Positions 1,414 to 8,670 of a stretch of 9,075 nucleotides of DNA are shown here, one piece after another. The DNA comes from Candidatus Omnitrophota bacterium (lineage in GTDB: Bacteria > Omnitrophota > JACPQZ01). The notes under the pieces are model-generated. The model saw only the letters and a program-made list of their open reading frames with translations. It had not been told where the DNA came from and ran no database searches. Position 1 is the stretch's first letter. Each line of letters opens with the position of its first letter. The position numbers and the translations under genes are program-made. The stretch spans positions 1 to 9,075 of the forward strand of contig JACPQZ010000016.1 of NCBI GenBank assembly GCA_016190205.1. The letters run 5' to 3'.

Positions 1414-1420
1414 CCTCCTA
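1414..1420 (-). promoter_or_regulatory. Strong Shine-Dalgarno sharing the upstream stop codon
   Basis: On the minus strand the sequence reads TAGGAGG followed by six bases and the ATG at 1407. The TAG of this motif (1418-1420) is also the stop codon of the octaheme cytochrome c gene. A ribosome terminating there sits on the ribosome-binding site of the lipoprotein gene, so translational coupling is likely. This site fixes the start of the lipoprotein gene. Confidence 0.8.
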
Positions 1421-4030
1421 TTGAGTTTCAAAAACGGGTTCCTGAACCGGCTCTGCCTGCGTCGCCTCACCCTCGGCCGGAACAACAGCCGGTTCGGGAA
1501 GAGGTTCCGGTTCTTCTTCAACACCTTCAAAAACCATGAGATAGTCGCGCACGGCCTGAATCTGAAGCGCCACATCCCCGCCCAGGATGTCTTTGGCCGG
1601 CGGGGGCACGTAGTAGCGGCCCATGATATAGGGCCAGTTCGTGGGCATGCGGGTACCCGGCTGAATCTTCTGCGGATCCTCCAGCCACGCCTTCACCCAC
1701 TCGGGTTTCAAGCGGTGCTTGACCTGTGTGAGATCCGGGGCCAGGTTTTCCGTGGGCACGCCCTCGGGGACCTCTCCTGCCACATGGCAGGCCAGGCACT
1801 TGAACATCTCAAAAAGCTGCTTACCCGCCTCAAGCCCCTCCTCCGTTGGAGCCGGGGTCTCGAAGGACTCATAGGGATAGGGCTCTCCGTCCAGCGCTGC
1901 GAAATACGCGACCAAACCCGTCACCTCTTTATCGTCAAATCCGAAATTCGGCATCCGGGCATCCAGCCAGGGCCGCAGGGTGCGGGGCTCCTTAAGGAAA
2001 TGGAAGAGCCAGTCCTGCCTGACCTTCTTCCCCTCCCCGGCGAGATCCGGCGCCACGTCGCTTCCCACCCCTTCTATCTTGTGGCAGGCCGTGCAGTTGT
2101 GCTCCCGGACAATCTGCCTCCCCAACTCGATGGCTCGCTCGCGCTCCGTCAACGGACTGCGACTCGATTCGGGCAGGCCATGCTCGGTCAGGGTCATGAG
2201 GTACGTCAGGAGGGCCTCCACTTCGCTGTCATCCAGATTAAAGGTGGGCATGTTCGCAAAAATGCGCTCGGTGTCGAACACCCCGGGCTTGTTTATTTTG
2301 TGCCGTACCCAGTCATAGACGGTGCGCGGCACCTCTTCCGGGCGGGTATACCCAAATTCAAGTTCATGGATGTGCTTGTCGGCCAGTCCCGTGAGGGGGG
2401 GAATAATCAGTTTCTGCTCTATACCTTCCACTTCATGGCAGGCCATACAACCTTTGCTCGCAATGAGTTCCTTGCCGCGCGCAATGAGCGTTTCCTGCGG
2501 CTCACCGCCCCCCTGCTGGACACCGCCCTGAAGACCCGCCCTCACCCCCTGCCCTTTCAAACTGGCCAGGTACTCCGTAATGACAAAGGCCTCACGGTCC
2601 GTAAGCCGGAAATCCGGCATGTGGGTGTGCGGCTGAAGTTTTTTGGGATCCTTCAGCCACTGGTATATCCATTCCGGGCGGGTCTTGTCTCCTATCAACG
2701 TAAGTTCAGGGGCATAGACATCCCCCTCCGCACCGACCTTGTGGCACCCCGCGCAATTGAGTTTACCCACGAGCTCCTGGCCCTCCGCAAGGTATTGCGA
2801 AAGATGGCCGAGCTCTTTTTCCGCCGCGGCGTAACCGGGACCGATCGTGTCATCGCGGAGCGAGGCGAGATACGCGCTGATGGCCTCTACCTCACCTTCC
2901 GCGAACCGGAAAGCCGGCATCCGCGTCTTGGGGCGAACGGTCTTTGGGTCCCGGATCCACGCCTCGAGCCACTTCTGTGACGTCTTCGACCCTAAGCTCA
3001 CGAGCTTGGGACCCACGCGGTGTTCCTCGAGCGGCTTGAATCCTTCAATCTGATGACAACCCCAGCACCCGTATTGTTCAAACAACTGCCGCCCCTTCAT
3101 CACGACCGGTGCCCCTTCAAGCTGGGTGACACCGCTGTGACACTGTAAGCAGCGCGTCTCGATGAATTTTCCATCCAGGAGGGGCTCATGCCAGAATTCC
3201 ACGCGGCCGTGAGCAGCCTCCCGCGTCGTAGCCCACCCCTGCCCTCCATGGCAGGAGGTGCAACCGAATTTTTCCGGCGGGTGGCTGGCCAGCAGGGTCT
3301 TAAACTGCGGGTGGGTGGCAAACGGCGGAGGGGCATCCTCCAGGCCCGGTTGATCCGCGCCCATGTGACAGGTCATGCAACGGTCCACCCGGCCCAGTTC
3401 CTCCAGGTTAAATTGCTTGATCTCCAGCCCGCGCGGGAAGACAAGAGCCTGTGCCTGCGTTTGCCTAAGCTTTTTCTCGAGCCTCCTGACATCCGCTTCG
3501 AGCCGGCCGATATCCGCCTGCGCCGCATCCACGGGGCTGTCGTAGTGCTCCACCCGGGCCTCGGCCTGATCCTTGATCTTCTCAAGGCCCGCCGCCCTTT
3601 CTTCCTGCTCCGAAAGCTCCCGCTTAAGCTCTTCCACCGCGCCCTTCTCAAACTCGCCCGCGCGCCCGCTTTTCACTTCATGCTCGTAACGGTACAGGGC
3701 CGCGTCCAGGCGGCTCTTGATAAACTGGCGCTTGCGGTCTTCCTTGAAAAAGATATGGCGCGCGGCCTTCCGTTCCTTCACGCCCTCGTCATAGTCTTCT
3801 TGGTTTTCCTTTTTGATCGTAACGGCCTGCTCAAGCGCGGCGCGCGCCTTCTCGAGTTCGGGACCCGAGAGACGGTCCCTTGCCTCCTGAAGCTCCTTTT
3901 GCGTCCTCTCCGCCAAAAGCCTTCTAAACCCCCGCTGGTAACCCTTCCACTCGCGGTTATATTCCGTCCAGAAACCCCACAGCGTGACCAGGAAAAGGAC
4001 GATGCCTATCCAGCCAAAGGCGCGCGACAC
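1418..4030 (-). CDS. Membrane-anchored octaheme cytochrome c with coiled-coil stalk, bc-complex-associated
   Basis: The 870-residue protein probably carries electrons from the Rieske/cytochrome b complex towards the oxidase on the outer face of the membrane. Residues 5-21 form an uncleaved membrane anchor. Residues about 30-195 are highly charged and helical, consistent with a long coiled coil. Eight CxxCH heme motifs follow, at 218, 257, 294, 322, 426, 528, 646 and 745. The first three are close together with many His residues (240, 250, 274, 281), consistent with bis-His hemes. The last five each belong to a class I cytochrome c unit with a downstream Met in an MP motif (M371, M471, M594, M693, M795). 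The tail (837-870) is rich in Glu and Pro. The start is GTG with GAGGA seven bases upstream (4038-4042). It follows the two cytochrome b genes, which supports a role as the c-type subunit. Its heme count and stalk are far from a canonical cytochrome c1 or f. Confidence 0.9.
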   Translation of the reverse strand: MSRAFGWIGIVLFLVTLWGFWTEYNREWKGYQRGFRRLLAERTQKELQEARDRLSGPELEKARAALEQAVTIKKENQEDYDEGVKERKAARHIFFKEDRKRQFIKSRLDAALYRYEHEVKSGRAGEFEKGAVEELKRELSEQEERAAGLEKIKDQAEARVEHYDSPVDAAQADIGRLEADVRRLEKKLRQTQAQALVFPRGLEIKQFNLEELGRVDRCMTCHMGADQPGLEDAPPPFATHPQFKTLLASHPPEKFGCTSCHGGQGWATTREAAHGRVEFWHEPLLDGKFIETRCLQCHSGVTQLEGAPVVMKGRQLFEQYGCWGCHQIEGFKPLEEHRVGPKLVSLGSKTSQKWLEAWIRDPKTVRPKTRMPAFRFAEGEVEAISAYLASLRDDTIGPGYAAAEKELGHLSQYLAEGQELVGKLNCAGCHKVGAEGDVYAPELTLIGDKTRPEWIYQWLKDPKKLQPHTHMPDFRLTDREAFVITEYLASLKGQGVRAGLQGGVQQGGGEPQETLIARGKELIASKGCMACHEVEGIEQKLIIPPLTGLADKHIHELEFGYTRPEEVPRTVYDWVRHKINKPGVFDTERIFANMPTFNLDDSEVEALLTYLMTLTEHGLPESSRSPLTERERAIELGRQIVREHNCTACHKIEGVGSDVAPDLAGEGKKVRQDWLFHFLKEPRTLRPWLDARMPNFGFDDKEVTGLVAYFAALDGEPYPYESFETPAPTEEGLEAGKQLFEMFKCLACHVAGEVPEGVPTENLAPDLTQVKHRLKPEWVKAWLEDPQKIQPGTRMPTNWPYIMGRYYVPPPAKDILGGDVALQIQAVRDYLMVFEGVEEEPEPLPEPAVVPAEGEATQAEPVQEPVFETQ

Positions 4031-4062
4031 TTATCATTCCTCAAGGAGAGCCCTGCCCGTTG

Positions 4063-4139
4063 TGCGTACTGCGTCGTGCGTACTGCGAAAACGCTGTACG
4101 CAGTACGCTGTACGCAGTACGAATCACGCAATACACGTT
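4063..4139. repeat. Mirrored heptanucleotide array 1 (between cytochrome b C-terminal gene and octaheme gene)
   Basis: Eleven consecutive 7-bp units fill most of the 126-bp spacer. The left half has units such as TGCGTAC and TGCGTCG (4063-4090), and the right half has units such as ACGCTGT and ACGCAGT (4091-4118), which are reverse complements in another phase. A 16-bp word recurs exactly at 4092-4107 and 4106-4121. The halves pair: 4078-4087 is perfectly complementary to 4099-4108, and 4064-4073 pairs with 4113-4122 at 9 of 10 positions. This gives a hairpin of about 24 bp with a small internal loop. A second perfect 7-bp hairpin has arms at 4125-4131 and 4138-4144. Function unknown. Confidence 0.85.
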
Positions 4140-4156
4140 GCGTGGACTGTCGACCA

Positions 4157-5041
4157 CTAAATATTGAACCACGGTGTTACGATCAAATATTTCAGGTTGA
4201 GCGTCCAGCGGAGAATCATCTTCACCGGCAAAAGCAGCATGAACAAAAATAAAAACATCGTCACCCAATAGCGAACGATGCCCAGTTGAGCAAAGAAAGC
4301 GCGCTTCACGAGCGCGACCACATAAGGGATAAAAGTGAACCACAAGAGCAGAAATAAAAAGCCGGGGACCTCGCGCACATACCAGGGGGTCTTGGGGTCA
4401 ATATCCAAAAGCTCCGAGAGATCCACGTTGGTGAGGGGCACCACCTTGTGAACATCCCACGGCTCGAAGGGGGAAAAGAAATTCCACCCCGGACCGCGCA
4501 TGAACGTGCCCGTAAAAATCATCGCTACCCACAGGATCAGGAATCCGAACAAAAACCCGAAAATGGCAAATGGCCGCTCCTGAAGCGTATAGTAGCCATT
4601 TCCTTTCGCGTTCTTATCAAGATACGGTATGGCCATGAGACCCAGGATGATCAGGGTCGGAAAAACCACCCCGGCAAGCCACGGATCGAAATAGACCAGC
4701 ATTTCCTGAAGGCCCAGGAAGTACCAGGGGGCCTTCGACGGGTTGGGCGTCACGGCAGGATTGGCTATTTCCTCCAGCGGCGCATTGACCGCAACAGACC
4801 AGATCACGAGAATAATAGTGACAACAAGGGCCGCGATAAACTCGCGCTTCAAGAGGTGGGGCATGACATCCACCTTTAGGCCTGACTCCTCGAGCTCCAG
4901 GGGACCTTTACCTGCTTTAATCCGCAGGTCATTCCGGATGGCCATGACGAAGGCCCAGCCCGTGTAGAAGAAAACCAAGAGCACCATCCCCGCGATGGGG
5001 ATGTTATCGGGCTTGCTTAAGATCTTGATGAAATGTTCCAT
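4157..5041 (-). CDS. Cytochrome b C-terminal subunit (subunit IV type, extended)
   Basis: This is the C-terminal half of a split cytochrome b and forms part of the quinol-oxidising Qo site. Six membrane segments are visible in 294 residues: about 15-35, 67-86, 121-140, 157-180, 225-245 and 255-278. The segment at 67-86, followed by NPSKAPWYFLGLQEML, corresponds to the helix before the PEWY loop of cytochrome b6f subunit IV, but the motif reads APWY (104-107), so its glutamate is absent. A GPGWNFF stretch (183-189) follows the fourth helix. Plant or cyanobacterial subunit IV is about 160 residues with three helices, so this protein has one extra helix at the N-terminus and two at the C-terminus. 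The ATG is preceded by GAGG only three bases away. It lies directly downstream of the b6-type gene, with one repeat-filled spacer between them. Confidence 0.92.
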   Translation of the reverse strand: MEHFIKILSKPDNIPIAGMVLLVFFYTGWAFVMAIRNDLRIKAGKGPLELEESGLKVDVMPHLLKREFIAALVVTIILVIWSVAVNAPLEEIANPAVTPNPSKAPWYFLGLQEMLVYFDPWLAGVVFPTLIILGLMAIPYLDKNAKGNGYYTLQERPFAIFGFLFGFLILWVAMIFTGTFMRGPGWNFFSPFEPWDVHKVVPLTNVDLSELLDIDPKTPWYVREVPGFLFLLLWFTFIPYVVALVKRAFFAQLGIVRYWVTMFLFLFMLLLPVKMILRWTLNLKYLIVTPWFNI

Positions 5042-5046
5042 TTACC

Positions 5047-5145
5047 TCGTCCGTCGTCCAGCGTCTGTCGTGTGTGATGTGTGGTGTGTGATGTGCAATG
5101 CGGCCCTTTCTCACCACACAGCACTCATCACTCACGACTCGTCAC
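5047..5145. repeat. Mirrored heptanucleotide array 2 (between the two cytochrome b genes)
   Basis: Eight 7-bp units (5047-5102), such as TCGTCCG, TGATGTG and TGGTGTG, are followed by an 8-bp spacer and five units of opposite sense (5111-5145), such as TCATCAC and TCACGAC. The two sides form one long imperfect hairpin: 5067-5095 against 5110-5138, with 24 of 29 positions Watson-Crick paired and a 14-base loop. The array starts within the ribosome-binding region of the downstream gene and ends just past the stop codon of the upstream gene (5142-5144). Confidence 0.85.
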
Positions 5146-5939
5146 GGTCCGGAGATGCCCCCGTCCTTGCGGACCCGCCATAGATGTACTGACAGAAAGA
5201 CTAGAAAGATGAGCGGAAAAGCAATACAGTGAAACACGTAAAAGCGAAGCAGGGCGTTTGGACCCACAATCCGTCCTCCCAGGAGGGCGAAGCGAACGTC
5301 GCTCGCCGCGTCCACGATGGAAAACGGCCCCTCTGCGCCCAGGAAAGGCGTCGCCTTGGCCATATTGGTCCCCACGGTCACCGCCCATAGGGCGAGCTGA
5401 TCCCACGGCAAAAGATATCCGGTGAAACTTAAGAGCAGGGTAAACGTGAGCAGCACTACTCCCACGCCCCAGTTAAATTCGCGCGGGGGCTTGTAACTGC
5501 CCGTCATAAAAACGCGCAGCATGTGCAGCCAAACCGTGACGACCATAGCGTGGCCAGACCACCGGTGGATATTTCTTAGGAACATCCCGAAGGGGACGTC
5601 GAATTCCAGAAACTTCATGTCGTGATAAGCCTCGGGTATGCTGGGCCGGTAATAAAACATGAGCAAGACGCCTGATACAAGGAGCACGAGGAAAAGGTAA
5701 AAGCTGATGCCTCCCATACCCCAGGTGAAGCTATAGCGAATACCATGTTTTCTCACCTTGACAGGATGGAGATGGAGCCACACGTTGCCGATGACCGCAA
5801 GCGCCCTGTTCCGCGGGGTGTCCTTATAATCCCGCCGGAACATGGACTTATAGAACTGGGAAGCCTTGATTTGGCGCGATAGCTCTTCCCAGTTTACGAG
5901 CTTTTTCTTAGGCGGTTTTTGTTCGATCGTTTCAGGCAT
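5142..5939 (-). CDS. Cytochrome b N-terminal subunit (cytochrome b6 type, diheme)
   Basis: This protein holds the two b hemes that carry electrons across the membrane in the quinol-cytochrome c reductase. Its 265 residues start with a cytoplasmic segment of about 70 residues and then four helices (about 75-97, 122-146, 157-178, 232-254). The heme ligands are H125 and H139 in the second helix (14 apart) and H237 and H252 in the fourth (15 apart). The 15-residue spacing and the PWDQ motif (178-181) are the cytochrome b6 pattern, not the mitochondrial one. In b6f complexes a Cys before the first-helix GG binds heme ci; here the aligned position is Gly74, so that heme is probably absent. The ATG at 5939 has only a weak AGAG upstream. 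The Rieske gene lies upstream and the subunit IV-type gene downstream, the usual order of such complexes. Confidence 0.94.
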
Positions 5940-5972
5940 CTCTACTTTTCGCCCTCATCCCCCTTCTCTCGC

Positions 5973-6007
5973 CCCACGTCCAACGTCCCACGTCCAACGT
6001 CCTACGT
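5973..6007. repeat. Heptanucleotide array 3 (between Rieske and cytochrome b6-type genes)
   Basis: Five consecutive 7-bp units of the form CCNACGT, with the variable base C, A, C, A, T in order. A 14-bp doublet therefore repeats exactly at 5973-5986 and 5987-6000. Weaker 7-bp, C-rich periodicity extends left to about 5954. Unlike the other arrays, I see no mirrored half; each unit instead contains the palindrome ACGT. It occupies much of the 76-bp gap after the Rieske stop codon. Confidence 0.85.
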
Positions 6008-6015
6008 AACCCTGT

Positions 6016-6582
6016 CTATACCTTTAGAAAAGCTTCAGGCCTCTCCCACTCACCCTTCTCATACCGGAAGGTCTTGCTTCGGTCCACCATGATCTGGCCG
6101 TCATCTGCCAATGAGATCGCTACCCGCTCGAGCGGGCGGGGGGCCGGACCCTCATAATTGATTCCGGTCATCTTAAAACCCGAACCGTGACAGGGGCACT
6201 TAAATTTGCTTTCGGCCATAAGCCACACCGGGGTACACCCCAGGTGCGTGCAGATTGCCGAGAGCGCATAAAAACCCTCCTTCGTCCGCACCACCCAGAC
6301 GCGGTATTTCTGCTGCCACTTGGTGCTGACCACACCTACCTCGTAATCCTCGGGGAAACCCACCCTGACTTGGGGAGGAGGTTCGAAAAGGACATTCGGA
6401 AAGAAAAAGCGCAGCGAGGCCCACGTGGAAGATAGAAGGGTAGCCCAAAATGCCCACCAGCCCGCGAGGAGAAAGAACCTTCTCCTCGACACCGCCTTTG
6501 GGCTCGTATCGGAATATTTAAGATCCGCCTCGGGATCTATTTTTTGCGGAGGCAGAGGTGTCTTGTTTAAAATATCAGGCAT
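6016..6582 (-). CDS. Rieske [2Fe-2S] protein of a quinol-cytochrome c reductase
   Basis: The Rieske protein takes the first electron from quinol at the Qo site and passes it to the c-type subunit. With the ATG at 6582 the product has 188 residues. A twin-arginine motif (SRRRFF) precedes a hydrophobic segment about 20 residues long, so it is probably exported folded by Tat and kept as an uncleaved anchor. The C-terminal domain has both cluster boxes, CTHLGC and CPCHGSGF. These supply two Cys and two His for the cluster, a Cys pair for the stabilising disulfide, and the Ser of the HGS motif. An in-frame TTG at 6591 would add three residues; ATG is preferred, but neither has a clear Shine-Dalgarno. 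The Tat genes lie immediately upstream and the cytochrome b genes downstream, matching its export route and partners. Confidence 0.95.
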   Translation of the reverse strand: MPDILNKTPLPPQKIDPEADLKYSDTSPKAVSRRRFFLLAGWWAFWATLLSSTWASLRFFFPNVLFEPPPQVRVGFPEDYEVGVVSTKWQQKYRVWVVRTKEGFYALSAICTHLGCTPVWLMAESKFKCPCHGSGFKMTGINYEGPAPRPLERVAISLADDGQIMVDRSKTFRYEKGEWERPEAFLKV

Positions 6583-6608
6583 TATAACCAAGTTAGCATA
6601 AGAACGGC

Positions 6609-6678
6609 GTTGTGCGGGGCGCGTTGTGCGTTGTGCGTCGCTCTCGCCTCACGCGCCACGCCTCACGCTCCACGCGAT
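6609..6678. repeat. Mirrored heptanucleotide array 4 (end of tatC to Rieske)
   Basis: Ten 7-bp units run in one unbroken phase. The left half has GTTGTGC three times plus GGGGCGC and GTCGCTC (6609-6643). The right half has TCGCCTC, ACGCGCC, ACGCCTC, ACGCTCC and ACGCGAT (6644-6678). The right half read on the other strand gives GCGTG-containing units resembling the GCGTT units of the left half, so the array is an imperfect inverted repeat, weaker than arrays 1, 2 and 5. The right end overlaps tatC: its last four codons and stop (6663-6677) are inside the array. Confidence 0.8.
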
Positions 6679-7379
6679 TTAAGCCAATATGATAACAGAA
6701 TTCCGAGTTCATATAAAAGGATCATTGGGATGGCCACCAGGCACTGGCTCACCACGTCCGGCGGAGTCACGATGGCAGCCACGATAAAGATGGCCACAAT
6801 GACGGGCGCCCTTTTCTGCCTCAAAAAGGCCGGGGTCACAATACCGATCCGGCTCAAGACCACCAAAAGAACCGGCAGCTCAAACACAATACCAAAGACC
6901 AAGAGCATCGCCCCGACGAACGAAAGATACCGATCGGCAGAGAGCATGGGCTCGATGACGCTCCCCCCGAACCCCATGAGAAACTTAAGCCCCACCGGGA
7001 CAGCCAAAAAAAACGCAAAGGCTACCCCCAGGGCGAAAAAGAGGACCACCGCCCAGACAGAGGCCCCCACCAAGCGGCGCTCCCGGTCCTTAAGCGCGGG
7101 CCAAACAAAGGCGCCAGCGTGATAAAGCACGAGGGGCATCGACAGGATCAGGCCCCCCATGAAAGCCACCTTGAGTCTTGCCACAAAGGCCTCGGAAGGA
7201 CCGATAAAAACGAGCCGAGGGACCGGCCGCGCCAGGTACATGAGCAGCGGATCGGCCCAATAAAACAGGACCATGGATAGAACTGCCACAGACCCCACCG
7301 ACCAAAGGAGATGCCGCCTGAGCTCGCGCAGGTGCTCCAGGACCGGCATCTTCTTTTCATTCGTGTCCGCTGGCATCAT
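6663..7379 (-). CDS. tatC: Sec-independent (twin-arginine) translocase subunit TatC
   Basis: TatC is the membrane receptor that binds twin-arginine signal peptides and nucleates the Tat export channel. The 238-residue product has six membrane helices and the family hallmarks: EHLRELRRHLL at the N-terminus (E19, matching E. coli Glu15), AFVWPALKDRERR (F91 and E100, matching Phe94 and Glu103), VFELP (E167, matching Glu170) and TPPDVVSQ before the last helices. The ATG at 7379 overlaps the small Tat gene by 23 bases. An in-frame GTG at 7394 has AAGGAG shortly upstream and would add five residues, so the start is not certain. The last four residues and the stop codon come from the heptanucleotide array, suggesting the natural C-terminus was altered by it. 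The likely local substrate is the Rieske protein encoded next. Confidence 0.95.
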   Translation of the reverse strand: MMPADTNEKKMPVLEHLRELRRHLLWSVGSVAVLSMVLFYWADPLLMYLARPVPRLVFIGPSEAFVARLKVAFMGGLILSMPLVLYHAGAFVWPALKDRERRLVGASVWAVVLFFALGVAFAFFLAVPVGLKFLMGFGGSVIEPMLSADRYLSFVGAMLLVFGIVFELPVLLVVLSRIGIVTPAFLRQKRAPVIVAIFIVAAIVTPPDVVSQCLVAIPMILLYELGILLSYWLKSRGA

Positions 7380-7533
7380 GATCTTTTTCGTCACGGAGCT
7401 CCTTTCCGAGAGACTTGAGCTCCCGTATGAGCTTTCCGGCACTGCGGGCAAGCTCTGGAAAACGGTCCGGCCCCAGGACGATGAGCGCGACCACCAAGAT
7501 AAGAACAACTTCCCAAAAACCGATCCCGAACAT
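7357..7533 (-). CDS. tatA: Small Tat translocase subunit, TatA/TatB family (58 residues)
   Basis: This 58-residue protein is the pore-forming or adaptor partner of TatC in export of folded proteins. It has one N-terminal membrane helix (about 7-20), then the hinge GPDRFPELAR (21-30), and an amphipathic, charged helix (about 25-50). The opening MFGIGFWEVVLILVVALIVLG fits the family, with a Glu at position 8. A Glu here is typical of TatB, whereas TatA usually has a polar residue at this place, so either assignment or a dual-function protein is possible. TatA and TatB proteins are commonly longer, so this one lacks most of the C-terminal tail. It starts 4 bp after the stop of the prenyl synthase gene, and its end overlaps the tatC start. 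The translation was read by hand; all 59 codons are open and end in TGA. Confidence 0.9.
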   Translation of the reverse strand: MFGIGFWEVVLILVVALIVLGPDRFPELARSAGKLIRELKSLGKELRDEKDHDASGHE

Positions 7534-7537
7534 AAGT

Positions 7538-8548
7538 TTAGTACCGCCTCATCACGGCAAAATCGGCCATGCGGGCAAGATGCTCTTTAATAGGACCATT
7601 CCGGCTAAGACCGTCCAGCTCCATCCGGGCGCGATCGCGGTACGCGTAGGCCCGCTCCCGCGCGTACTCGAACGCCCCCGAGCGCTCGAGTTCCGCGCGC
7701 ACGGTCTTCAGGCGCTCAGGCGGTGCCAAGTCTAGTATCTCGCCAAACCGCCGCCGGACCCCATGATCCTGCCGCAAATGAAAGATGAGGGGAAGCGTCA
7801 CGAGACTGTTCGAGACATCCAATCCCATTTCCTTGCCGGTCAGATCCGGGTCCCCTTCCAGATCCAAACAATCGTCCACAATTTGAAACCCGACGCCCAG
7901 ACTAAGCCCGAACTCAAAGAGCCGCTGCGCATCTGCCCGGCTCAAACCCCCCAAGATTCCCCCCGCCCCGCAGCAGGCAGCTATCAAAGACGCGGTTTTC
8001 TCTTCGAGAATCTTGAGATATTCCTGCTCTGCGAGATCCAAGGCTCCTGTCCGCAGGACCTCGCGTATCTCCCCTTGGCACATCGACACCGCGGCTTGAG
8101 AAAATAACGCCGACACGGCCCCGGACCCAAGGTCCGAAATCATCCCGAAGGCCTTGGCATACAGGAGATCGCCCGCCAGAATTCCCACCCGGTTATTCCA
8201 TTTCTTGTGGAGCGTCGCCTGCTTACGCCTCAAGTCCGAATCGTCGATAATGTCGTCGTGCACCAGGCTCGCGCTGTGGAGGAGTTCCGCGGCGCAGGCA
8301 AGGGCGATGTCTTTGCCCCCAGCCGCCGCGCCGAGATAGGAACACAAAAGCACAAGCGCCGGGCGCAAACGCTTCCGGCTCGCAAGGGCTAAGTCCCGCG
8401 TGACCGCCCCCACCGGCTCGGGGATGCCTTTGAGAAACCGGGCATAGAGTTCGTCGGACTGCTTGAGGGCGTCCGCGACAGGCGCGTAGATCACTTCCAG
8501 GGTATCCGGGCGCTTCATATCAGTACAACCGTTAAGGCGCTCATGCAT
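7538..8548 (-). CDS. Trans-polyprenyl diphosphate synthase (quinone side chain)
   Basis: This enzyme condenses isopentenyl diphosphate onto an allylic diphosphate to build the long prenyl tail of a respiratory quinone. The 336-residue length fits the family. Both Asp-rich motifs are present: DDIID at 98-102 (first, substrate-binding) and DDCLD at 225-229 (second). The diphosphate-binding RKRLRP (58-63) replaces the more usual GKRLRP. KTA (184-186) and GKEMGLD (238-244) are also family motifs. The ATG at 8548 is preferred to the one at 8518 because GGGAGAG lies just upstream (8553-8559). The neighbouring UbiE/MenG gene supports a role in quinone rather than carotenoid synthesis. Chain length cannot be read safely from the sequence; octaprenyl and heptaprenyl synthases are both possible. 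Confidence 0.92.
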   Translation of the reverse strand: MHERLNGCTDMKRPDTLEVIYAPVADALKQSDELYARFLKGIPEPVGAVTRDLALASRKRLRPALVLLCSYLGAAAGGKDIALACAAELLHSASLVHDDIIDDSDLRRKQATLHKKWNNRVGILAGDLLYAKAFGMISDLGSGAVSALFSQAAVSMCQGEIREVLRTGALDLAEQEYLKILEEKTASLIAACCGAGGILGGLSRADAQRLFEFGLSLGVGFQIVDDCLDLEGDPDLTGKEMGLDVSNSLVTLPLIFHLRQDHGVRRRFGEILDLAPPERLKTVRAELERSGAFEYARERAYAYRDRARMELDGLSRNGPIKEHLARMADFAVMRRY

Positions 8549-8552
8549 AACA

Positions 8553-8559
8553 CTCTCCC
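8553..8559 (-). promoter_or_regulatory. Shine-Dalgarno of the prenyl synthase gene
   Basis: Minus-strand GGGAGAG lies four bases before the ATG at 8548. It favours that start over the internal ATG at 8518, which has no such signal. Confidence 0.6.
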
Positions 8560-8569
8560 GTCACACGCC

Positions 8570-8660
8570 GGTCATCGGTTATCGGTGATCGGTTATCGCA
8601 AGCAGCAGTTTGATCTTCATCTTTAGATTGCGATCACCGAATACCGATGACCGATCAACG
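8570..8660. repeat. Mirrored heptanucleotide array 5 (between ubiE and the prenyl synthase gene)
   Basis: Thirteen 7-bp steps stay in one phase. Four left units have the form GGTNATC (8570-8597), and four right units are ATCACCG, AATACCG, ATGACCG and ATCAACG (8633-8660). The central 35 bases show little unit similarity. The arms 8569-8591 and 8631-8653 are complementary at 21 of 23 positions, with a 39-base loop. The array ends just before the stop codon of the upstream methyltransferase gene (8671-8673). Confidence 0.88.
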
Positions 8661-8670
8661 AACCCAGCGA

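What the first reader, a model, noticed from the sequence alone, without database searches (positions are those of the whole stretch)
4031..8670. Every long intergenic gap holds its own 7-bp-period array, mostly mirrored into a hairpin
All five gaps over 60 bp contain degenerate tandem units with a strict 7-bp period. The unit differs in each gap (for example TGCGTAC, TGATGTG, CCNACGT, GTTGTGC, GGTNATC), so these are not copies of one dispersed repeat. Four of five flip to reverse-complement units midway. Gaps of 4-10 bp lack them. Heptamer tandem repeats (STRR) are known in heterocystous cyanobacteria, but those reuse fixed units. Different sequences with a shared period and shared symmetry suggest a common generating process (slippage plus strand switching) or selection for structure, for example RNA stabilisation between cistrons.
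Basis: partly seen in the sequence, partly recalled or inferred. Interest (0 to 1): 0.8.

Follow-up and report, generated by a model that had tools for sequence, protein, structure and literature searches.

The report
Scattered hairpin repeats of seven-base units
The gaps between genes in this bacterium are filled with copies of short, often hairpin-shaped DNA repeats built from seven-base units; they are scattered through the whole genome and look like tolerated, self-spreading repeat DNA more than a control system tuned to these genes.

Summary
The arrays are real. All five gaps over 60 bp in the window have lag-7 identity of 0.49-0.61, against 0.25-0.33 in shuffles (0 of 2000 reach it). Three gaps (g1, g2, g5) form mirrored hairpins; g3 is direct only and g4 is not mirrored.

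The claim that each gap holds its own private array fails: all five have relatives elsewhere in the same 1.65-Mb genome. g2 is one of about 23 copies of a ~75-bp palindromic element (E2); g1 is a shortened copy of a dispersed element (E1). The genome holds about 360 period-7 segments, against 0-5 at each neighbouring period (4-11). They lie between co-directional genes (153/446 gaps), almost never in divergent gaps (1/31).

Best reading: lineage-specific dispersed palindromic repeats, REP/ERIC/MITE-like in behaviour, whose arms gain and lose 7-bp units. Structure selection is not supported for E2 (no compensatory changes), and the hairpins lack terminator T-tracts. Period-7 arrays with other sequences recur across the phylum (53/145 genomes with one probe); one relative uses period 8. 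Heptamer excess is already known; the mirrored, dispersed, genome-saturating form is a new variant. What moves the elements, and why 7 bp, stay open.

The parts
4058..4128 (.). g1: mirrored heptamer array, arm 4058-4087 (CGTTGTG CGTACTG CGTCGTG CGTACTG CG) and arm 4091-4121 (ACGCTGT ACGCAGT...), between the cytochrome b C-terminal-half gene and the multi-haem cytochrome c gene; shortened copy of dispersed element E1
   Evidence: fold z -3.2/-3.6; E1 copies share the odd unit CGTCGTG and the CGAAAAC loop start
5061..5141 (-). g2: copy of palindromic element E2 (~75 bp, about 23 copies; the minus strand is the family orientation), between cytochrome b N- and C-terminal-half genes
   Evidence: fold z -2.8/-2.3
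5973..6007 (.). g3: direct (unmirrored) array of CACGTCC/AACGTCC units between the Rieske and cytochrome b genes; same unit family at C47, C33 and C66
6607..6638 (.). g4 first half: GCGTTGT units; same unit family at C36, C70, C75 and C15
6641..6675 (.). g4 second half: CGCCTCA/CGCTCCA units, running about 13 bp into the 3' end of tatC; not the reverse complement of the first half
   Evidence: z about 0
8569..8598 (.). g5 left arm: CGGTYAT/CGGTGAT units ending TTATCGCAAG; same arm at several places on contig C70
8599..8626 (.). g5 loop; GCAGCAGTTTGATCTTCA resembles the centre of the two-copy CCAG element at C26:6052 and C23:11762
   Evidence: weak: 7 mismatches in 28 overall
8627..8661 (.). 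g5 right arm: reverse-complement units (CGATCAC, CGAATAC, CGATGAC, CGATCAA)
   Evidence: (fold z -3.5/-5.7)
1418..4030 (-). gene flanking g1: multi-haem cytochrome c
   Evidence: Pfam Cytochrom_C
4157..5041 (-). cytochrome b C-terminal-half gene (identified from the sequence and operon position)
   Evidence: inference
5142..5939 (-). cytochrome b N-terminal-half gene
6016..6582 (-). Rieske iron-sulphur gene (identified from the sequence and operon position)
   Evidence: inference
6663..7394 (-). tatC
   Evidence: Pfam TatC
7538..8548 (-). polyprenyl synthetase gene
   Evidence: Pfam polyprenyl_synt

Best explanation
The arrays are members of several families of dispersed non-coding repeats that saturate this genome. 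A typical element is about 70-250 bp, a quasi-palindrome whose arms are tandem 7-bp units around a short loop; some families (as in g3) are direct arrays only. Two processes act together. (1) Copying: whole elements (E1, E2, a CCAG element) have been duplicated to many sites in both orientations and have since diverged; this is shown by conserved irregular units, loops, linkers and ends. (2) Unit turnover: arms gain, lose and replace units in steps of 7 bp, probably by replication slippage, so unit number differs between copies and one heptamer shifts into another in register; this is inferred from comparing copies. Elements survive where they do least harm, in transcribed spacers between co-directional genes from just after a stop codon to just before the next start, and are nearly absent from divergent, promoter-bearing gaps. 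The enzyme that copies them and the reason for 7 bp are not identified. Any effect on mRNA folding is probably a by-product.
For: Genome-wide excess at period 7 only. All five window arrays have relatives in the genome. E1: 14 matching places with conserved odd unit, loop and linker. E2: 23 copies, 21 aligned, with shared ends and invariant columns. 142 of 276 clusters share at least 30 non-array bases with another; 93 distinct units against 331 expected. Unit number after the E1 loop varies from 3 to 8. CG phase is kept across 18 of 30 unit switches, against about 4 expected. Co-directional gaps with an array 153/446, divergent 1/31, Fisher p 9e-5. Arrays start a median 9 bp after the stop and end 20 bp before the next start. 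Most families show no orientation bias against transcription. E2 is found in this genome and in no other of 145 phylum members searched, apart from one weak 35-bp partial match.
Against: No target-site duplication or empty site could be shown, since no close relative is held. Of four Y1 (RAYT-type) transposase genes only one has an array beside it, and no reverse transcriptase of family RVT_1 was found. g3, g4 and most of g5 share only the array itself with other sites, which convergent generation from similar units could also produce. E2 has an orientation bias with transcription (17:3, p 0.003) that neutral spread does not predict.
Confidence: 0.68

Rival explanations
1. Each array was generated locally in its own gap by replication slippage with a 7-bp preference, plus template switching that mirrored it.
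For: Period 7 dominates whatever the sequence, in this genome and in relatives (against 80); unit number varies between E1 copies; 44 of 93 units occur once.
Against: Far fewer distinct units than independent origin predicts, and many clusters share flanking, loop or linker sequence.
Confidence: 0.15
2. The hairpins are selected as RNA structures between cistrons, for example to protect or process mRNA as some REP elements do.
For: Gaps with arrays fold more stably than gaps without (median z -2.9 against -0.9); inverted pairs exceed direct ones 50:12; location is between co-directional genes; E2 orientation bias 17:3.
Against: In E2 the arms show less covariation than all 500 shuffles, and some heptamer positions are conserved mismatches; g3 and g4 are not hairpins; most families show no orientation bias.
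Confidence: 0.1
3. The arrays are clustered binding sites for a DNA-binding protein that reads one unit every 7 bp, as proposed for paired tandem repeats in Geobacter metallireducens.
For: CG is the best-conserved dinucleotide in 66 arrays and the least conserved in 11; units keep an anchor (CGT, ACCAG) while other positions vary.
Against: Many unrelated unit families in one genome; per-position conservation is only slightly more uneven than chance; no candidate protein identified; near absence from divergent, promoter-bearing gaps.
Confidence: 0.05
4. The arrays are intrinsic transcription terminators.
For: Hairpins sit just after stop codons.
Against: A T-rich tract follows the array on the sense strand in 1 of 153 gaps; the hairpins lie inside what looks like one operon; terminator-like matches in the window lie outside the arrays.
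Confidence: 0.01
5. Assembly error.
For: Arrays are about three times denser near contig ends.
Against: Copies are diverged and sit in distinct flanks on many contigs; the same type of array occurs in many independently assembled genomes. Enrichment at ends is what true repeats cause.
Confidence: 0.01

Closest known systems
Heptanucleotide long simple sequence repeats of prokaryotes (Mrazek et al. 2007, as summarised in PMC4679880; also PMC4692102)
   Same: Excess of 7-bp tandem units over other lengths, scattered among bacteria, mainly intergenic; a 7-nt polymerase contact was proposed to favour slippage.
   Different: Here the arrays are degenerate, mosaic, often mirrored, and many are parts of larger copied elements.
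Geobacter metallireducens multicopy elements: 49 four-heptamer elements and paired tandem octa-/heptanucleotide sites on opposite strands (PMC2700814)
   Same: Tandem 7- or 8-bp units, many copies per genome, often as inverted pairs with variable spacing, species-specific sequence.
   Different: Read there as regulator-binding sites or regulatory RNA; fewer families; I found no covariation or placement test in the passages read.
REP elements, GTAG and CGTC super-families (PMC3733652)
   Same: Palindromic, high copy, between co-directional genes, rare in divergent gaps, species-specific families.
   Different: REPs are 20-40 bp without heptamer arms; RAYT association not shown here.
ERIC-like repeats and MITEs (own knowledge)
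   Same: Dispersed non-coding palindromes of about 70-250 bp in transcribed spacers, both orientations, running into gene ends.
   Different: No target-site duplication or parent transposase shown.
TAACTGA repeats of Beggiatoaceae and GGGNATC repeats of Xanthomonas/Nostoc (PMC4679880, PMC4692102)
   Same: Genome-wide intergenic heptamer arrays.
   Different: One fixed unit type per genome, as direct repeats; here dozens of units with mirroring.
Cyanobacterial STRR heptamers
   Same: Tandem 7-bp units.

Membership tests
Heptanucleotide long SSR class | Tandem 7-bp units well beyond chance, more than other unit lengths | tested here: met
   361 segments at lag 7 against 0-5 at lags 4-6 and 8-11
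Heptanucleotide long SSR class | Arrays are simple iterations of one unit at each site | tested here: not met
   Many clusters are in-register mosaics or parts of composite elements
REP elements | Placed between co-directional or convergent genes, rare in divergent gaps | tested here: met
   153/446 co-directional, 2/13 convergent, 1/31 divergent
REP elements | 20-40 bp palindromes | tested here: not met
   E2 is about 75 bp, E1 and the CCAG element longer
REP elements | GTAG or CGTC tag outside the stem | tested here: inconclusive
   Many E2 copies begin CGTC, but the opposite end pairs with it in part, so it is not clearly an unpaired tag
REP elements | RAYT gene flanked by the same repeat | tested here: not met
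   4 Y1_Tnp genes; only the C66 copy has a nearby array, and none has E1 or E2
MITE | Terminal inverted repeats on a multi-copy non-coding element | tested here: met
   E2 ends GCGYCTGTCGTG ... CACGACAGGCG, about 23 copies
MITE | Target-site duplication | tested here: inconclusive
   Flanks of 21 E2 copies listed; no clear duplication by eye, no formal test
MITE | Parent insertion sequence with the same ends | not tested
   Only Y1_Tnp and RVT_1 families were searched
Structured RNA element | Compensatory base changes in the stem | tested here: not met
   E2: covariation 0.052 against 0.078 in shuffles, 500/500 at least as high
Known Rfam RNA family | Match at gathering score | tested here: not met
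   No match in the window
Intrinsic terminator | T-tract after the hairpin on the transcribed strand | tested here: not met
   1 of 153
STRR of cyanobacteria | The fixed STRR unit sequences | not tested
   STRR units were not searched for

The most novel reading that the evidence does not exclude
Members of this phylum have an unidentified activity, such as a dedicated polymerase, recombinase or DNA-binding protein, that builds and spreads mirrored arrays with a lineage-set unit length: 7 bp in most, 8 bp in one relative (G099). Sequence is free while period and symmetry are fixed.
Probability: 0.13. Interest if true: 0.85.

Novelty: new variant of a known kind. Interest (0 to 1): 0.5.

Why it matters
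Heptamer excess in bacteria was reported in 2007, and I found no tested mechanism for it in the papers searched. This genome has hundreds of arrays, several copied families and clear unit-number differences between copies. A related genome shows period 8 with the same probe design. That makes the question of what sets the unit length open to comparative and laboratory tests. It also warns annotators: these arrays create spurious reading frames, shift predicted starts and stops, and break assemblies.

Tried and rejected
Terminator reading rejected. RAYT as mover not supported: only one of four genes lies beside an array. Reverse transcriptase (RVT_1) absent. Structural selection on E2 tested and not supported; an apparent covariation in the first alignment disappeared once copies were put in one orientation. 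Lag values are inflated by masked N contigs, so only (N excluded) is used. Comparison of the same gene junctions in 82 other loci was not informative because start sites are uncertain. A tatC-based viral scan found nothing. The comparison of relatives' units with this genome is biased, because several of those loci were picked through the CCAG pattern.
Full report
OBSERVATION. The window is one whole contig (C4) of a 1.65-Mb, 76-contig draft genome. Genes on the minus strand run from cytochrome oxidase subunit II to a UbiE-like gene; Pfam confirms the multi-haem cytochrome c, TatC, TatA and polyprenyl synthetase, and cytochrome b is confirmed by homology. The Rieske, CoxII and UbiE identities rest on my reading of the sequence. 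All five gaps over 60 bp carry period-7 arrays: lag-7 identity 0.49-0.61, with 0 of 2000 dinucleotide shuffles reaching it; Tandem Repeats Finder agrees. Folding shows true mirrored hairpins in g1, g2 and g5, a direct array in g3 and no mirrored pairing in g4.

GENOME SCALE. I fetched nearly the whole genome (1,643,273 bases) and called 1491 genes with a simple in-frame hexamer model; gene starts are therefore approximate. Period-7 segments with score 16 or more number 361, of which 257 are intergenic by that gene set; lags 4-6 and 8-11 give 0-5. Lags 14, 21 and 28 also rise, as expected. Lag 24 rises, probably because of the 7+7+10 layout of the CCAG element. Segments scored as coding mostly lie at gene ends or in weak gene calls.

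DISPERSED FAMILIES. The claim that each gap has a private unit fails. All five arrays match other places in the genome. Among 396 homogeneous sub-arrays there are 93 distinct units where random units would give about 331, and the commonest occurs 44 times against about 3.5. 142 of 276 clusters share at least 30 bases of non-array sequence with another cluster. E1 has 14 matching places of 105 bp or more, with a conserved odd unit CGTCGTG, a loop CGAAAACCCATTCTCAACTTTC and a linker TCGGGGCGAGC in most of them. g1 has the odd unit in the same place and a shortened loop, so I read it as a copy. E2 has 23 copies; 21 were aligned and give CGTCTGTCGTGAGTGNTGAGTGGTGAGTGATGAG..CTGTCTCACCACACATCACACACCACTCACGACAGGCG; g2 is one of them. 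A CCAG element of about 250 bp has two copies 93% identical over 255 bp on C23 and C26 and many looser relatives. E2 is found in this genome and, apart from one weak 35-bp match, in none of the other 144 phylum genomes searched.

PLACEMENT. Arrays occur in 153 of 446 co-directional gaps, 2 of 13 convergent and 1 of 31 divergent gaps of 40-600 bp (co-directional against divergent, Fisher p 9e-5). They begin a median 9 bp after the upstream stop and end 20 bp before the next start, so they make up most of the gap. Most families show no orientation bias with transcription. E2 does: 17 copies run with the flanking genes and 3 against (p 0.003). This bias is unexplained.

SYMMETRY AND STRUCTURE. 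For same-family sub-arrays 15-200 bp apart, 50 pairs are inverted and 12 direct (p 1e-6). Gaps with arrays fold more stably than gaps without: median z -2.9 (n 107) against -0.9 (n 293). In E2, however, the arms do not compensate each other's changes: cells paired 78.5% against 80.7% in shuffles, and the covariation score is below all 500 shuffles. Some heptamer positions are conserved mismatches. So E2 is kept as a sequence, or simply inherited from its copying, and not as a maintained stem. Terminator function is unlikely: a T-rich tract follows the array in 1 of 153 gaps.

UNIT TURNOVER. The number of units after the E1 loop ranges from 3 to 8. Where one unit type gives way to another, the CG phase is kept in 18 of 30 cases. 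CG is the best-conserved dinucleotide in 66 arrays and the least conserved in 11, although overall unevenness between positions is slight. This fits slippage in 7-bp steps with slow drift; it is inference, not observed change.

RELATIVES. No genus- or family-level relative was among those offered. In the same phylum, the CCAG pattern is abundant in G056 (68+52) and G016 (19+22) and occurs in 27 of 145 genomes. A generic CGT-every-7 probe hits 53 of 145 genomes; the same probe at period 8 hits 5, but one of these, G099, has about 140 sites at period 8 and none at period 7. Sampled relatives show mirrored heptamer arrays with other sequences; several of those stretches were chosen because they held the CCAG pattern, so they do not measure prevalence. 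Among 80 loci from many phyla, four held period-7 arrays.

MECHANISM. Best-supported: dispersed palindromic repeats spread by copying, with arms that change by unit slippage, tolerated in transcribed spacers. Shown: dispersal, conserved irregular features, placement, period, absence of compensation in E2. Inferred: slippage, neutrality. Unknown: the mover and the reason for 7 bp. Four Y1 transposase genes exist; only one has an array beside it, and short repeats of other sequence lie beside at least three of them.

KNOWN WORK. Heptamer excess among long simple repeats was reported in 2007, with a polymerase-footprint idea, as summarised in PMC4679880; PMC4692102 and PMC4679880 describe single-unit genome-wide families. 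PMC2700814 describes multicopy heptamer and octamer repeats, many as inverted pairs, in Geobacter metallireducens, which is the closest parallel. PMC3733652 describes REP placement between unidirectional and convergent genes, which matches. I found no description of this form in the papers searched, which cover open-licence papers only. I class it as a new variant of a known kind.

Noticed in passing
G099 (same phylum), e.g. C3:4937-5012: A genome with about 140 period-8 sites (ACGTNNNN) and none of the period-7 probe sites; the unit length seems to be lineage-specific.
   Followed up: partly
E1 copies at C37:11611, C13:152 and 781, C63:18589, C36:11-238 and 3277-3431: E1 elements sit at or inside the predicted starts of pseudopilin-like and type II secretion genes (N_methyl, T2SSK, PilX_N), so array sequence may encode leader-peptide residues.
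   Followed up: partly
C32:10212-11048, C66:4043-5290, C13:22006-22581 (G000): Y1 transposase genes have their own short repeats nearby (TAATGCAAGACCTGACCCC inverted; AAAGGTGCCAGGCA; CAGACACACATGTGTGTCTG), unrelated to the heptamer arrays.
   Followed up: no
E2 copies, 21 loci: The asymmetric orientation of E2 follows transcription in 17 of 20 cases, although its stem shows no compensatory changes.
   Followed up: partly
C13 just upstream of 22006 and C39 near 10500 (G000): The palindrome CAGACACACATGTGTGTCTG beside the C13 transposase gene has a similar sequence near C39:10448.
   Followed up: no
whole genome G000: Adjacent genes are overwhelmingly co-directional: 446 co-directional against 44 other gaps of 40-600 bp.
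   Followed up: no
L025:2981-3013: A Methylomirabilota locus has a period-7 array (AGTGATG-like units) just after the same cytochrome b gene.
   Followed up: no
seven contigs of G000 (C6, C10, C14, C22, C45, C53, C58): These contigs read almost entirely as N (withheld).
   Followed up: no
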